Positions 1-57,275 of a stretch of DNA of 57,275 bases are shown here, in pieces. The position numbers were made by a program, and so were the translations under genes. Position 1 is the stretch's first letter, and each line of letters begins with the position of its first letter. The DNA comes from Clostridiaceae bacterium (GTDB lineage Bacteria > Bacillota > Clostridia > Oscillospirales > Acutalibacteraceae), in assembly GCA_016280595.1 (NCBI GenBank), contig JAEEHB010000055.1:1-57275 (forward strand), written 5' to 3'. Below the pieces are notes generated by a model. The model saw only the letters and a list, made by a program, of their open reading frames with translations. It was not told the origin of the DNA and did no database searches.

Positions 1-1
1 A

Positions 2-140
2 CCTCAAAGAGATGAAATTTGTGCATATTTGCAGGTTTTGACGACGAGGAATACTTGGCTGTATTCCGAGGAGGAAACCCTGCATAAGATGTGCAAAGGT
101 CGCTCTTTGAGGCATTACTGTTTTATGACCCTCCGCCCTT
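2..140 (+). repeat. Structured repeat element, left copy (candidate small RNA)
   Basis: Bases 27-140 are identical to the reverse complement of 57162-57275, giving a 114-bp exact inverted duplicate at the two window edges. The left copy also folds into one nested rod on the plus strand: a 10-bp outer helix (2-11 with 103-112, no mismatch), a 9-bp helix with two G-T wobbles (18-26 with 89-97), an inner helix (31-35 with 79-83, extended by 36-38 with 75-77), and a 7-bp apical hairpin (48-54 with 61-67, loop ttggct). A weak terminator-like hairpin follows at 130-147. This looks like a multi-copy structured RNA or a palindromic mobile repeat. I do not recognise a named RNA family. A short reading frame (TTG at 19 to TAA at 87, ending FDDEEYLAVFRGGNPA) crosses it but lacks a convincing ribosome site. 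Confidence 0.7.
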
Positions 141-158
141 TCGGGGGTGCTCTGTTTT
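130..158 (+). terminator. Weak terminator-like hairpin after the left repeat
   Basis: CCTCCG at 130-135 can pair with CGGGGG at 142-147 (one T-G wobble), followed by a T-rich stretch (gttttcattttatt). It would end a plus-strand transcript of the repeat element. The stem is only 6 bp, so this is tentative. Confidence 0.35.
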
Positions 159-175
159 CATTTTATTATTAGTTT

Positions 176-1510
176 TTATTCGTGAGCGCTTGTACCTTCA
201 AAGCGGTCGAGTGTTAAGTTTCCGGCGTTTTCGCAGTCAATCGCGTCTGCGTATTCGTCACACACTCTGCCCCAGCTGACTTTTGATTTAGATATTTTCA
301 CATTGTCTGCGTATCTTATGCAGAAGCCCGAATTTTTATGTTTTTCAACCTCTCTGCCGATGCCCGGGCGCAGGTCGTAAAGTCCGCTTTCCCATTTTGA
401 GGATTTGTCAAGCGTGATACTGCAGTTTTCAAACAGCACATCTTTAATCCTGTTTTCCTCTGTGCCGTGTATCAGTACGCCGTTTTCGCCTTTTGCGGTG
501 ATGTTGAAAAACCTGATGTTTTCTATACTGCCGCTCTTCGTGTTTTCGTCGCGGTTAAATGTGGTTATCACTATCGGCTCGGCGGTGCCCCACCAGTCGG
601 GGCAGAAGCGTCTTGTTTCGATTATGATATCCGAATATGAAACATTTTCAACACAGCCGCCGTCTCTTATCTGGATTGAAAGCCCTCTGTTTGAGCGGCT
701 TATGATGCAGTTGCTGACCAGTATATTTCTGAAATCTCCCACGCCCTCTGTGCCGATTTTAATCGCGGCGGAGGTTGAAACGAGCGTACAGCCGCTTATG
801 ATTATGTTTTCGCACGGTCCGTATTCGGAATTGCCTTTTGATGTTTTAAGGCAGATGCAGTCGTCCGCGCACTCGATATGGCAGTTTGTAATCCTGACAT
901 TTGAGCAGTGGTCGGGGTCTATGCCGTCGGAGTTTGCCACGTCAAGGTCGTTGAGAATACGGATGCTGTCAATTCTCACATCGTCACACCCTGCGGGGTG
1001 CAGAGTCCAGAAAGGGGCATCCTTTACACAGAAATCGCGCAGGGTGATATGGTTGCTCTTTTCAATATATATGACTGTCGGGCGGGGATAAAAATCGCCC
1101 GTGACATAATACCTGTCTTTTCTTTTCACAAATGAATGACCGTTTGCGTCAATCAGACCTTCACCGCTGATTGAGCAGAAATCCGCCTCATAAGCGTATA
1201 TAAATACAAAACTCGGTTTGCCCGTCACGGGGTTTCCGATGAGGGCTGTCTTCGGGTCGTTTATCTGCATATTAGGGCGGAAGTAACCTTCAATATCGCC
1301 CGTAGCCTTAAGCACGGCGCCTTTCTGAATGTGCAGGTCAACATTTGCCTTAAGGTGAATTGAACTGCTGTAAAAGGTTTTGCCGCTTTCAAGCACTACT
1401 CTGCCGCCGCCGTTTGAGGCGCATTCGTCAATCGCTTTCTGAATTGCGGCGCTGTCGTCCGTTTTGCCGTCTGCGAGTGCGCCGTATGAAATTGCATTGT
1501 ATTCTTTCAT
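176..1510 (-). CDS. Glycoside hydrolase family 28 (polygalacturonase-like), cytoplasmic
   Basis: This 444-residue protein has the right-handed parallel beta-helix pattern of GH28 pectin-degrading enzymes: an N-terminal pectate-lyase-superfamily strand (YGALADGKTDDSAAIQKAID, near residue 8) and the GH28 signatures NSDGIDPDHC and ADDCICLKT carrying the catalytic aspartates. The third classical GH28 motif (GHGxSxGS) is replaced by IKIGTEGVGDFRNI. There is no signal peptide, so it should act in the cytoplasm on imported oligogalacturonides or related oligosaccharides. The ATG lies one base beyond the stop of the upstream thiolase gene, so the two are translationally coupled. The exact substrate cannot be read from the sequence. 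Confidence 0.88.
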   Translation of the reverse strand: MKEYNAISYGALADGKTDDSAAIQKAIDECASNGGGRVVLESGKTFYSSSIHLKANVDLHIQKGAVLKATGDIEGYFRPNMQINDPKTALIGNPVTGKPSFVFIYAYEADFCSISGEGLIDANGHSFVKRKDRYYVTGDFYPRPTVIYIEKSNHITLRDFCVKDAPFWTLHPAGCDDVRIDSIRILNDLDVANSDGIDPDHCSNVRITNCHIECADDCICLKTSKGNSEYGPCENIIISGCTLVSTSAAIKIGTEGVGDFRNILVSNCIISRSNRGLSIQIRDGGCVENVSYSDIIIETRRFCPDWWGTAEPIVITTFNRDENTKSGSIENIRFFNITAKGENGVLIHGTEENRIKDVLFENCSITLDKSSKWESGLYDLRPGIGREVEKHKNSGFCIRYADNVKISKSKVSWGRVCDEYADAIDCENAGNLTLDRFEGTSAHE

Positions 1511-54748: not shown

Positions 54749-56041
54749 ATGAAAAAAATACTCGTTGCAGGCTGCGGGCACGGCGGTCTTTATGCCGCTT
54801 ACGCGCTTGCAAAAGCAGGCTTTGATGTAACTGTTTTCGAGCAGAAGGAAAGAGATAATCTCGGCTACGACTGGCACGACTGCATTTATCCGCCCGATTT
54901 TGAGCGCCTCGGCATCCCTCTGCCCGAATGTGACGAAATCATACCGTTTTACGGCTCCGTTTATACCAACCCCGCAAAGACCGTGAAACTCAGGGTTGAT
55001 TTGCCCGAAGATTCAAAACTCAGATGTATCGACCGCATCTTTCTTCTCAATCACCTTGCGGACCTTGCCATTTCGGCAGGTGCCGAAATCCGTTTCGGCG
55101 TAAAGGTAAACGGCGCGGTTACAAGAAACAACGAAGTCACCGGACTTGACACCACCGAAGGCATTTTCAATGCCGACCTCGTAATAGATGCGGCGGGGCT
55201 TGATTCCCCCGTAAGAAGGAGCCTGCCCGAAAGCTGGGGCATAATCCGTGAATTGCCCGAAGACGATGTCTTTTATACATGGCGCGGCTATTTTGAAAAC
55301 AAGACCGGTGAAGTCAGCGACCCCGCGCAGACCATATATTTCTACCACTGCGGCAAACCCGGTATGGACTGGAATGTTACCGACAGAAATTTCATAGACA
55401 TACTTGTAGGCAGGTTTTATCCCATAGGGCAGGAGGACGTTGATGAGGCGGTAGCCGATGTGCGCGCCGATCTTCCCTTTATGGGCGATAAACTCATCAG
55501 GGGCGGCAGTTTCGAAAAGATACCTCTCAGGCTTCCACTTCCTCTGTTTGTATGGAACGGCTATGCCGCTGTAGGCGACAGCGCCTGTATGACCGAGCCG
55601 ATGAGCGGATCCGGTATCAACAACAGCATCAACGCCGGCGCCTATCTTGCCGAAACGGTTGCCGGTGCGCGCGGCGGCAAACTTACCCTTGAAGTGCTGT
55701 GGAAATATCAGTATAAATATTTCAAAAATTACGGCGAGCATCATTTTTCACCTGAAATCGTGCGCAGGATGCTTCAGTCACTTTCCGCGCAGGATATCGA
55801 TTATTTCTTCGAAAAGAGAATCCTTACGGAGAAAGAACTCAAAGCGGGCGGCATCACCGCTTCTTCCGTGTCGGAGACGGTGAACAGAATTATCGCTTTC
55901 ATTCCCAAAATCAATCTTCTGCCCGCGCTCTCGGGCGTGCCGTATAAAAACGGCATAGCCGAAAAGGTGAAAAAACTCATGCCTCAGAAGTATTCCCGTG
56001 ACGCTTACCTCAAGTGGCGAAAAGAATTTGAAAGGTTATAA
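54749..56041 (+). CDS. FAD-dependent oxidoreductase (geranylgeranyl reductase-like)
   Basis: A 430-residue flavoprotein with the Rossmann FAD motif VAGCGHGGLYAAYALAKAGFDVTVFE at the N-terminus, a DG-like region VIDAAGLDSPVR, and the ribityl-binding GYAAVGDSACMTEPMSGSGINNSIN. It belongs to the group of NAD(P)/FAD-dependent oxidoreductases that includes geranylgeranyl reductases and halogenases. Substrate unknown. ATG 54749 follows GGGGGTGA. It shares one base with the start of the next gene. Confidence 0.83.
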   Translation: MKKILVAGCGHGGLYAAYALAKAGFDVTVFEQKERDNLGYDWHDCIYPPDFERLGIPLPECDEIIPFYGSVYTNPAKTVKLRVDLPEDSKLRCIDRIFLLNHLADLAISAGAEIRFGVKVNGAVTRNNEVTGLDTTEGIFNADLVIDAAGLDSPVRRSLPESWGIIRELPEDDVFYTWRGYFENKTGEVSDPAQTIYFYHCGKPGMDWNVTDRNFIDILVGRFYPIGQEDVDEAVADVRADLPFMGDKLIRGGSFEKIPLRLPLPLFVWNGYAAVGDSACMTEPMSGSGINNSINAGAYLAETVAGARGGKLTLEVLWKYQYKYFKNYGEHHFSPEIVRRMLQSLSAQDIDYFFEKRILTEKELKAGGITASSVSETVNRIIAFIPKINLLPALSGVPYKNGIAEKVKKLMPQKYSRDAYLKWRKEFERL

Positions 56042-57144
56042 TGAAAATGAATATATTTATTGAATGGGCGCTTCTCTGCCTTGCCGCAGAGGCTGCCGTA
56101 ATTGCGGTGCACCTGCTTCTGCGCAAAAAACAGAACAGCAGAAAAGCGCGTATAATCACAATCATCTCTGAGTTTCTTGTTTCTGTTGCCTGCGCGACGA
56201 TTGTATTGGCTGGCCCCGTTTCATTCAGACCCGTTCAGCCCTTCCTTTTTGCGCTTTATGCGGTGCTCTTCGCGGATGCTTTGGGCCTTACCGTTTATTA
56301 TCTGATTTGCGCCATAGCGAAAAAAGAGAGAAAGACCGTTATCAGCCGAGTGATTTGCGCCGTTTTTGCCGTCGCTTTCATTGTTTACGGCACGGTGAAT
56401 ATGCAGATTGTAAAACCTGATTACCACACATATTATTCGCCCAAAATCAGCGGCGAAACAAAAATCGTGTTTGCGGCGGATATACACGTCGGCGGCTCAC
56501 AGCCCTTTGAAGTAACCGAAAAGACGGTGAAGGCAATGCTTAGCGAAAACGCCGACTGCATTATACTCGGCGGCGATATCACCGATGACTACACTACCGC
56601 TGAAGAAATGAAGAATATGTTTGCTCTCTTTGCAGGGAGCGAAACACCCGTTTACTATGTTTACGGCAATCACGACAGGCAGGCTCACGCCGACTACGCA
56701 AAAGGCAGGCAGTTTACGGAGGAAGAACTCGCTGAAACCCTTGCCGCCTGCGGTATCACGGCTCTTATTGATGAATATGCCGCCGTTAATGATGAACTTG
56801 TTATTCTCGGCAGGGAAGATGATTCCGTCAGCACCAGAAAAGACATCAAGGATTTGCCTGCAAATCCAAATGAAAGCGCCTACCTCGTTGTTGCCGACCA
56901 TCAGCCCGTAAAAGCGGATGAAAATCTTGAAACAGGTATGGACTTGCAGCTTTCCGGCCACACTCACGCCGGTCAGCTTTTCCCGCTCGGTTTGCTTTAC
57001 AGAGTTATCGGAGCATCCTGCGGAGAGTATAAAACGGGTAACGCTCTGCTCTATGTCAGCCCCGGTGCCTGCGGCTGGCGGATGCCTATAAGAACACAGT
57101 CGCAGTGCAGATACGAAGTAATAACCCTTATGCCTATGAAATAA
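56041..57144 (+). CDS. Membrane metallophosphoesterase (YkuE/YaeI-like)
   Basis: A 367-residue protein with four N-terminal membrane helices (residues 1 to about 125) and a calcineurin-like phosphoesterase domain carrying the metal motifs IVFAADIHVGG, LGGDITDD, YGNHDRQAH and LSGHTHAGQLFP. Relatives such as YkuE act at the cell surface; one E. coli relative (LpxH/YaeI types) acts on lipid phosphates. It overlaps the FAD gene by one base (TAATG). It stops 17 bp before the terminal repeat. Confidence 0.88.
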   Translation: MKMNIFIEWALLCLAAEAAVIAVHLLLRKKQNSRKARIITIISEFLVSVACATIVLAGPVSFRPVQPFLFALYAVLFADALGLTVYYLICAIAKKERKTVISRVICAVFAVAFIVYGTVNMQIVKPDYHTYYSPKISGETKIVFAADIHVGGSQPFEVTEKTVKAMLSENADCIILGGDITDDYTTAEEMKNMFALFAGSETPVYYVYGNHDRQAHADYAKGRQFTEEELAETLAACGITALIDEYAAVNDELVILGREDDSVSTRKDIKDLPANPNESAYLVVADHQPVKADENLETGMDLQLSGHTHAGQLFPLGLLYRVIGASCGEYKTGNALLYVSPGACGWRMPIRTQSQCRYEVITLMPMK

Positions 57145-57161
57145 AAAAATCCCGGTTTCGT
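57142..57161 (-). terminator. T-run downstream of the right repeat copy
   Basis: Read on the minus strand, the sequence after the repeat is ACGAAACCGGGATTTTTTTA. The T run is good but the possible stem (CCC/GGG) is only three base pairs, so I call this tentatively as the end of a transcript of the right repeat copy. Confidence 0.3.
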
Positions 57162-57275
57162 AAGGGCGGAGGGTCATAAAACAGTAATGCCTCAAAGAGC
57201 GACCTTTGCACATCTTATGCAGGGTTTCCTCCTCGGAATACAGCCAAGTATTCCTCGTCGTCAAAACCTGCAAAT
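57162..57275 (-). repeat. Structured repeat element, right copy, cut by the window edge
   Basis: Exact reverse complement of bases 27-140 (114 of 114). The copy is incomplete: the 5' part (26 bases in the left copy, containing the arms of the outer and second helix) lies beyond the window end. Both copies, if transcribed, would read towards the middle of the window. The flanking sequences differ immediately outside the 114 bp, so this marks the true edge of the shared unit on the inner side. Confidence 0.8.

What the first reader, a model, noticed from the sequence alone, without database searches (positions are those of the whole stretch)
1..140. Exact 114-bp inverted repeat at both ends of the window
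Bases 27-140 equal the reverse complement of 57162-57275 without a mismatch, and similarity stops abruptly on the inner side (base 141). No coding gene is duplicated. A window ending inside such a repeat is what assembly contigs look like when a multi-copy element breaks the graph. This implies a dispersed family of identical or near-identical copies in this genome, under active spread or gene conversion.
Basis: partly seen in the sequence, partly recalled or inferred. Interest (0 to 1): 0.7.

Follow-up and report, generated by a model that had tools for sequence, protein, structure and literature searches.

The report
Mobile palindrome inserted in terminator loops
The repeat at both ends of this contig is half of a 280-base mobile palindrome with at least 14 copies in this draft genome; it tends to sit in the loops of gene terminators, and relatives with the same foldable core but different ends occur across its bacterial order.

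Summary
In detail: 27-140 is the exact reverse complement of 57162-57275. The window is a whole contig of a 65-contig draft genome; bases 1-140 match 16 stretches there, 10 touching a contig end. The repeat is the right half of an element of about 280 bp: 26-bp terminal inverted repeats, two long hairpins, no consistent reading frame, 14-16 copies. Copies sit in loops of intrinsic terminators with TT on both sides. Flank stems link 9 of 12 right ends to a left end, seven clearly, two with a close runner-up.

The interior is shared more widely than its ends. A covariance model finds it in 37 of 45 genomes of the genus and 42 of 245 of the order, own genome included. The same interior carries at least three different kinds of end; one goes to terminator loops, the others lie at TA. 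The fold is kept by double changes at 37 of 85 pairs, without a strand preference across genomes, so it may act as DNA.

I read it as a non-autonomous transposable element moved in trans. No mobiliser was found, and a target duplication is plausible but not proven. No Rfam family fits.

The parts
2..112 (+). Copy 1: hairpin H2, the right-hand arm of the element; the left part (terminal repeat, hairpin H1, small hairpin) lies on another contig, probably C20
   Evidence: window 1-130 folds at -52.1 kcal/mol, z -6.8; consensus structure with covariation; stem link to C20
113..138 (+). Copy 1: right terminal inverted repeat CATTACTGTTTTATGACCCTCCGCCC
   Evidence: matches the left ends GGGCGGAGAGTCGTAATCCAGTATTGG of other copies
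139..140 (+). Copy 1: TT outside the right end; contig C20 has TT before the left end. Possible target duplication, not proven
146..154 (+). Right arm GGTGCTCTG of the interrupted terminator; pairs 9 of 9 with CAGAGCACC at the end of contig C20; T-run at 155-158
   Evidence: runner-up C33 with 8 pairs
176..1510 (-). Neighbouring ORF (444 aa); its 3' end lies 35 bp beyond the TT of copy 1
56041..57144 (+). Neighbouring ORF (367 aa); its 3' end lies 17 bp before copy 2
57145..57161 (+). Outer flank of copy 2 (AAAAATCCCGGTTTCGT), terminator-like left arm by eye; its partner arm was not found
   Evidence: best stem only 4 bp
57162..57163 (-). Copy 2: AA (TT on the element strand) outside the right end
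57164..57189 (-). Copy 2: right terminal inverted repeat
57190..57275 (-). Copy 2: part of hairpin H2, cut by the contig end

Best explanation
Both window ends are the right-hand halves of two copies of one non-autonomous, MITE-like transposable element of about 280 bp. The whole element is a near-palindrome: a stem made of its two terminal repeats, then a long hairpin H1, a small hairpin and a long hairpin H2. Copies spread into the loop of intrinsic terminators, at a TT, probably with a 2-bp target duplication. The terminator arms stay on both sides of the element, so damage to the host is probably small. An enzyme encoded elsewhere acts on the ends. The conserved interior fold most likely works as DNA (a hairpin or cruciform read during transposition), because across genomes both strands fold about equally well. 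Shown: copies, ends, TT on both sides, terminator flanks, covariation, shared interior across an order. Inferred: movement in trans, the duplication, the DNA-level role of the fold, low cost to the host.
For: Copies: 16 matching stretches and 17 strong matches of the two halves in this genome. Terminal repeats, with TT outside 14 of 14 left and 12 of 12 right ends. Terminator stems: 9 of 12 own right ends find a left end with a perfect stem of at least 9 bp, one of them the known true partner; 41 of 91 terminator-class copies pass a strict stem test against 3.2% with permuted flanks, and 37 of the 41 have an A- or T-tract; mean flank duplex energy -16.7 against -10.3 permuted. Covariation: 37 of 85 pairs with double changes against 25.8 shuffled, 254 such cells against 69, 0 of 500 shuffles each; slid versions give 7-13 pairs. 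Matches in 37 of 45 genus genomes and 42 of 245 order genomes, own included. No consistently open frame. As DNA, one copy folds with z -13.3.
Against: No mobiliser was found: IS30 and IS630 models give 0 matches in the own genome, and no longer element with the same ends was seen in the near-complete relative G281. The 2-bp duplication is not proven: after orienting the copies, equal flanking dinucleotides are 65 of 91 against 0.613 in a permuted control, because TT is so common; of 26 copies whose left dinucleotide is not TT only 4 are equal. No empty site was compared. By the strict test 50 of 91 terminator-class copies lack a perfect flank stem, among them own copy C9b and 7 of 15 G281 copies. 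One covariation measure, further pair types, did not exceed shuffles (80 against 78.4, 163 of 500), and many double changes separate two sequence families. Within the genus the + strand folds better in 31 of 34 copies, which would fit an RNA role.
Confidence: 0.7

Rival explanations
1. A structured non-coding RNA gene family carried by transposable ends; the fold is kept because the transcript has a function.
For: Strong covariation. In the genus the + strand alignment folds better (-90.9 against -75.2) and 31 of 34 copies are more stable on that strand; on pairs chosen from the + strand fold G-U cells outnumber A-C cells 202 to 28. Conserved letters such as AAAACTGC..GCACC in the order.
Against: On the 58 pairs predicted for both strands G-U cells are balanced, 18 against 20. 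Over 48 genomes the + strand is more stable in 28, p 0.31. No Rfam match for window 1-600 or 8 loci with full copies; one sub-threshold hit (mir-8517, 31.1 of 70 bits) falls inside the L173 copy and I take it as chance. No expression data.
Confidence: 0.2
2. The mobiliser is an IS30-like DDE transposase, which (recalled) chooses palindromic targets and makes 2-3 bp duplications.
For: Palindromic targets entered near the centre, with TT on both sides. IS30 transposases exist in the genus: 6 of 45 genomes, 5 over the cut-off.
Against: No IS30 match in the own genome, and among the copy-rich genomes only a fragment in G017. No tblastn hit of the L173 IS30 protein in the 1.58 Mb of G281 examined. 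The ends of the one IS30 locus that I read by eye (L173) differ from the element ends; an inverted-repeat script returned none for it. The duplication itself is unproven, which is why I lowered this rival from 0.2 to 0.15 on checking.
Confidence: 0.15
3. The element is moved as folded single-stranded DNA by a hairpin-reading (HUH/RAYT-like) enzyme.
For: Strand-neutral fold across genomes and a strong DNA fold. Flanking dinucleotides are oriented within lineages: TT in the own genome, AA in 9 of 11 oriented G281 copies. Two RAYT-like ORFs, named from a recalled motif, in G281.
Against: Both RAYT-like ORFs contain other palindromes, of GTAGGG type, and no link to this element was shown. The own genome was not searched for such a gene.
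Confidence: 0.15
4. The inverted repeat is an assembly artefact (mirrored or chimeric contig end).
For: Both copies lie exactly at contig ends.
Against: Different flanks at the two ends, two copies inside contig C9 (91%, and a shortened one at about 97%), and many copies inside contigs of other species.
Confidence: 0.01

Closest known systems
[quoted passage not shown]
   Same: Short, non-coding, terminal inverted repeats, many near-identical copies.
   Different: Terminator-loop target; interior fold kept by compensatory change and shared by classes with different ends and targets; no parent transposon found; duplication unproven.
Pneumococcal BOX, RUP and SPRITE repeats (PMC3049150, passages read)
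   Same: Small structured interspersed repeats, over-represented between convergent genes; the paper describes terminal repeats paired to each other in the BOX and RUP folds.
   Different: SPRITE itself resembles a terminator; the present element is inserted into terminators. Sequence relation was not tested.
IS1272, stem-loop-replacing transposition (PMC5678879, passages read)
   Same: Chooses potential stem-loops of unrelated sequence as target.
   Different: IS1272 replaces the target stem-loop and leaves no duplication; here the arms remain on both sides in the copies that pass the stem test. IS1272 encodes its transposase.
REP sequences and RAYT transposases (PMC2817692, start of abstract in the listing)
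   Same: Palindromic repeats that may be moved in trans by another gene's enzyme.
   Different: Much longer, with terminal inverted repeats; no linked RAYT gene shown.
Group IIC introns (recalled)
   Same: Associated with terminator hairpins.
   Different: No consistent reading frame, no Rfam match, and it lies in the loop with terminal inverted repeats.

Membership tests
MITE | Short non-coding element with terminal inverted repeats | tested here: met
   about 280 bp, 26-bp ends, no consistent open frame
MITE | Short target-site duplication | tested here: inconclusive
   TT on both sides is common, but equal dinucleotides (65 of 91) barely exceed an oriented permuted control (0.613), and only 4 of 26 non-TT copies are equal; no empty site compared
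MITE | Parent autonomous transposon with the same ends | tested here: not met
   own genome: 23 exact end matches, each a known copy end, 3 with two mismatches not followed; genus: none in the listed part of a cut list; G281: none among 24 places with 0-1 mismatch. A parent elsewhere is not excluded, hence MITE-like
IS1272-type IR-replacing element | Target stem-loop replaced | tested here: not met
   target stems remain on both sides in 9 of 12 own right ends and 41 of 91 terminator-class copies
IS30-mobilised element | IS30 transposase with matching ends in the genome | tested here: not met
   0 IS30 matches in the own genome, which is 78% complete
IS630/Tc1-mariner-mobilised element | TA on both sides as target duplication | tested here: not met
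   terminator class has TT or AA in 61 of its 65 equal pairs; TA is seen in the other two classes
Known Rfam RNA family | Match to a covariance model at its gathering score | tested here: not met
   0 matches for window 1-600 and 8 loci; in L173 and L294 nothing reached a gathering score
Group IIC intron | Reverse transcriptase or intron domains | tested here: not met
   no consistent reading frame, no Rfam intron match
REP/RAYT system | RAYT gene that moves the repeat | tested here: inconclusive
   two RAYT-like ORFs in G281 by a recalled motif, no link shown; own genome not searched

The most novel reading that the evidence does not exclude
An order-wide family of mobile DNA whose conserved, foldable core has been fitted several times with different terminal repeats, and with each new set of ends has changed its landing site (loops of terminators, or TA). 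The core itself would then be the hereditary unit, probably a DNA structure that recruits or licenses several transposition machines, at least one of which reads hairpin loops.
Probability: 0.35. Interest if true: 0.8.

Novelty: new variant of a known kind. Interest (0 to 1): 0.6.

Why it matters
It points to a transposition system that prefers terminator loops, a landing site likely to spare host genes, and to a structured DNA core that outlives its own ends. Because the terminator arms match across a copy, the element also helps to join contigs that short-read assembly had to break: the left end of this window probably continues into contig C20. A mobiliser that reads hairpin loops would be a useful tool and a new question for transposition biochemistry.

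Tried and rejected
Rfam gave nothing for the element; it gave weak FMN riboswitch halves around two distant copies and a sub-threshold mir-8517 hit inside one, taken as chance. IS30 and IS630 family searches in the genus gave no candidate parent. The end pattern gave 0 in viral contigs; blastn of one copy gave no match in phages and plasmids. A signature scan for a longer element in terminators over 1.58 of about 1.96 Mb of G281 gave 10 rows at five places; I opened two and both enclose ordinary genes by eye, the other three were not opened. Self-comparison of the same DNA (top 45 of 263 rows read) showed a repeat family of about 0.5-0.7 kb at some ten places; three copies that I translated are repeat-rich coding sequence, not a transposase. 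A coding role of the element was rejected. An RNA-strand preference looked real in the genus but did not hold on strand-neutral pairs or across 48 genomes. That the two 31-32-bp solo ends in G281 are truncated retro-insertions was dropped, because a deletion between short AGGGC repeats explains them. A tRNA origin of the TA-class ends was suspected by eye; ARAGORN found no tRNA in 8 loci. A first control for the 2-bp duplication mixed strands (0.31); the oriented control (0.613) removes most of that support, so I withdrew the duplication as shown and lowered the best explanation from 0.75 to 0.7. Literature: the listings show no description of this element; most subscription papers are not held, so this is weak evidence of absence.

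Notebook slips corrected here: one search parsed 54 copies, not 52; alignment A1 covers 11 genomes, not 9; not all G281 copies pass the terminator test; the notes call the 2-bp repeat a duplication and the relatives' habitat rumen or omasum, both more firmly than the calls allow.

Full report
What the repeat is. Bases 27-140 are the exact reverse complement of 57162-57275. The window is contig C65, complete, of a draft genome of 1.83 Mb in 65 contigs, 78% complete. Bases 1-140 match 16 stretches in that genome (15 places; two rows are one copy): 10 touch a contig end, 3 lie within 150 bp of one, 3 rows are inside contig C9. Fourteen of the 16 are 97-100% identical; one inner copy (C9:31501) is 91%. 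The other half of the element, read from contigs that run into it from the opposite side, has 17 strong matches. There are 14 left outer ends and 12 right outer ends; if the stem links below hold, they make 14 to 16 copies, depending on whether the two right ends without a partner (C6, the right end of this window) belong to left ends that also lack one.

Anatomy. A complete copy runs GGGCGGAGAGTCGTAATCCAGTATTGG ... CATTACTGTTTTATGACCCTCCGCCC, about 280 bp, with TT outside 14 of 14 left and 12 of 12 right own-genome ends. The whole folds as one stem of the two terminal repeats enclosing hairpin H1, a small hairpin and hairpin H2: -123.9 kcal/mol, z -10.4 as RNA for the joined 287-base query, and -81.4 kcal/mol, z -13.3 as DNA for a copy in C9. 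The window keeps H2 and the right terminal repeat of copy 1, and part of H2 with the right terminal repeat of copy 2. No reading frame stays open consistently among copies.

Target. In the own genome the sequences outside the two ends form terminator stems. Pairing 12 right flanks with 14 left flanks, 9 right flanks find a left flank with a perfect stem of at least 9 bp; one of them is copy C9a, whose true partner is known. Seven are clear; two have a close runner-up (window start: C20 with 9 pairs, C33 with 8, but C33 pairs better with C40; C64: C28 and C20 both 10). Three find none: C6, the window's right end, and C9b, whose true partner is known and does not pair. In 147 copies with both flanks (flanks under 30 nt and duplicates dropped; classes set by end sequence, with rules written after I had seen the flanks), 41 of 91 terminator-class copies have a perfect flank stem of at least 6 bp with at least 3 G-C near the junction, against 3.2% with permuted flanks; 37 of the 41 have an A- or T-tract. 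For the TA class it is 5 of 29 against 5.3%, for the third class 2 of 13 against 1.2%, for the unclassified 2 of 14 against 0.5%. The other 50 of 91 fail, 7 of the 15 G281 copies among them; many look like mismatched terminators by eye. By duplex energy the terminator class averages -16.7 against -10.3 permuted.

Flanking dinucleotides. In the terminator class 65 of 91 copies have equal 2-bp flanks, 19 of 91 equal 3-bp flanks. A control that mixes strands gives 0.31, but once copies are turned so that T leads, the control is 0.613, and of 26 copies whose left dinucleotide is not TT only 4 are equal. Eight further copies read TA|TT and would become TT|TT if the end is drawn one base further out (my reading). 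TT at the junction is thus clear; that it is a duplication is only plausible. In the two TA classes 20 of 29 and 10 of 13 have equal flanks, TA or AT; TA is its own complement, so there too it could belong to the ends. Read with H1 on the left, 38 of the 77 terminator-class copies that could be oriented have TT on both sides, 15 AA, 24 are mixed; the own genome and G017 are TT, G018 mostly, G281 mostly AA. Ends and target strand are thus told apart within a lineage.

Relatives. By blastn 18 of 60 genomes, own included, have a match, all in the same genus, some of them only short stretches of the ends. The end pattern in named genomes gave 91 stretches, 80 listed: 75 are Clostridia, Clostridiaceae, Clostridiales or Ruminococcaceae drafts, several named for goat, sheep or buffalo rumen, omasum or duodenum, and 5 are outliers without the rest of the element. 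I parsed 54 complete copies from 54 fetched loci, 3 of them from the own genome, and aligned 34 of the 54 (near-duplicates and several short copies left out) from 11 genomes. The consensus has 85 pairs; 37 show a change on both sides against 25.8 shuffled, 254 such cells against 69, covariation score 0.307 against 0.146, 0 of 500 shuffles each; further pair types do not exceed shuffles (80 against 78.4). Shuffles do not keep relatedness, and many double changes separate two families; slid controls give 7-13 such pairs. A model of this alignment finds matches in 37 of 45 genomes of the genus at E 1e-3 and 42 of 245 of the order at E 1e-4, 28 of 127 genera, own included.

Same interior, different ends. 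Copies outside the first set carry other terminal repeats: further GGGCG-type ends with TT or AA; ends like AGCCGAAGGGAGTCGAACCC at TA; ends like TACTTTTTGAAACGGTAATC at TA. To see whether the shared interior is more than shared folding, I trained a sequence-only profile on 70 interiors of the terminator class: it hits 56 of 56 copies of the other classes at the right place (E 4e-57 to 5e-3) and none of their 56 reversed sequences. Those 56 had been found by the covariance model, so the rate is not independent, but the similarity is in the letters. Two distant copies (G021, G061) appear to lie inside an FMN riboswitch: Rfam sees the 3' half (E 9e-4 and 1e-7) and, weakly, the 5' half (E 0.11 and 0.18), all below its gathering score.

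RNA or DNA. In the genus the + strand folds better: -90.9 against -75.2 for the alignment, 31 of 34 copies singly. But on the 58 pairs predicted for both strands, G-U cells are 18 for one strand and 20 for the other, and over 48 genomes the + strand is more stable in 28, p 0.31. I therefore favour a fold that matters as DNA, without excluding RNA.

Mobiliser. None was found. IS30: 6 of 45 genus genomes, none in the own genome, in the copy-rich ones only a fragment in G017. IS630: 10 of 45 weak, none over the cut-off. G281, three contigs and 99% complete, has 15 copies. Of 24 places with its end sequence at 0 or 1 mismatch, 20 belong to copies, 2 are solo ends of 31-32 bp in terminator loops, and 2 are not part of a copy and are taken as chance; most of the 38 places with 2 or 3 mismatches were not examined. 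A scan of 1.58 of about 1.96 Mb for a longer element with this signature gave five places; of the two opened neither is a transposon. The genome has two RAYT-like ORFs by a recalled motif, with no link shown.

Verdict. The finding is real and its reading right as far as it went. Beyond it lies a mobile palindrome that prefers terminator loops, and an order-wide core that has worn several kinds of ends. I file it as MITE-like, a new variant, because no parent transposon and no proven duplication were found, and because target and core conservation are unusual. What would lift it to a new kind is the mobiliser.

Noticed in passing
L294:1461-1860 and L173:145-565: Distant copies appear to interrupt an FMN riboswitch in two species of the genus (G061, G021); Rfam matches the two halves on either side below the gathering score, the 5' halves only weakly. 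In L173 the ORF downstream looks like a riboflavin transporter (named by eye).
   Followed up: partly
about L407:1488-1519 and L412:1488-1519: Solo right ends of 31-32 bp inside terminator loops of G281, the same product at two loci; explained by deletion between AGGGC repeats.
   Followed up: partly
L179:5152-5196 (G029): A 45-bp remnant with only the two terminal repeats of the element, again after a terminator-like left arm.
   Followed up: no
L301:1002-1275 and L307:1777-1946: A second, apparently related palindromic repeat in G024 with ends TAACCGAGTGATNATAANNCGAACCC, lying directly beside the first one at TA.
   Followed up: partly
L450:2169-2792 (G281 C1:462169-462792, +) and L500:12488-13093 (C2:892488-893093, -): Two RAYT-like (REP-associated transposase) ORFs by the motif MPNH[VI]H; each stretch contains a GTAGGG-type palindrome (C1:462394-462596, C2:892675-892844).
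   Followed up: partly
L339, L344, L349, L384: Ends of the TA class (such as GGTTCGACTCCCTTCGGCT) resemble a tRNA T-arm with acceptor strand; ARAGORN calls no tRNA there.
   Followed up: partly
L173:1360-2358: An IS30 transposase ORF lies about 0.9 kb from a distant copy in G021; its ends look different by eye.
   Followed up: partly
G281 C2:324990-325747, 746943-747554, 55669-56338 and others: A family of 0.5-0.7-kb repeat-rich coding stretches (repeats such as SGKKYYMGADGAAYTKKLI) at some ten places.
   Followed up: partly
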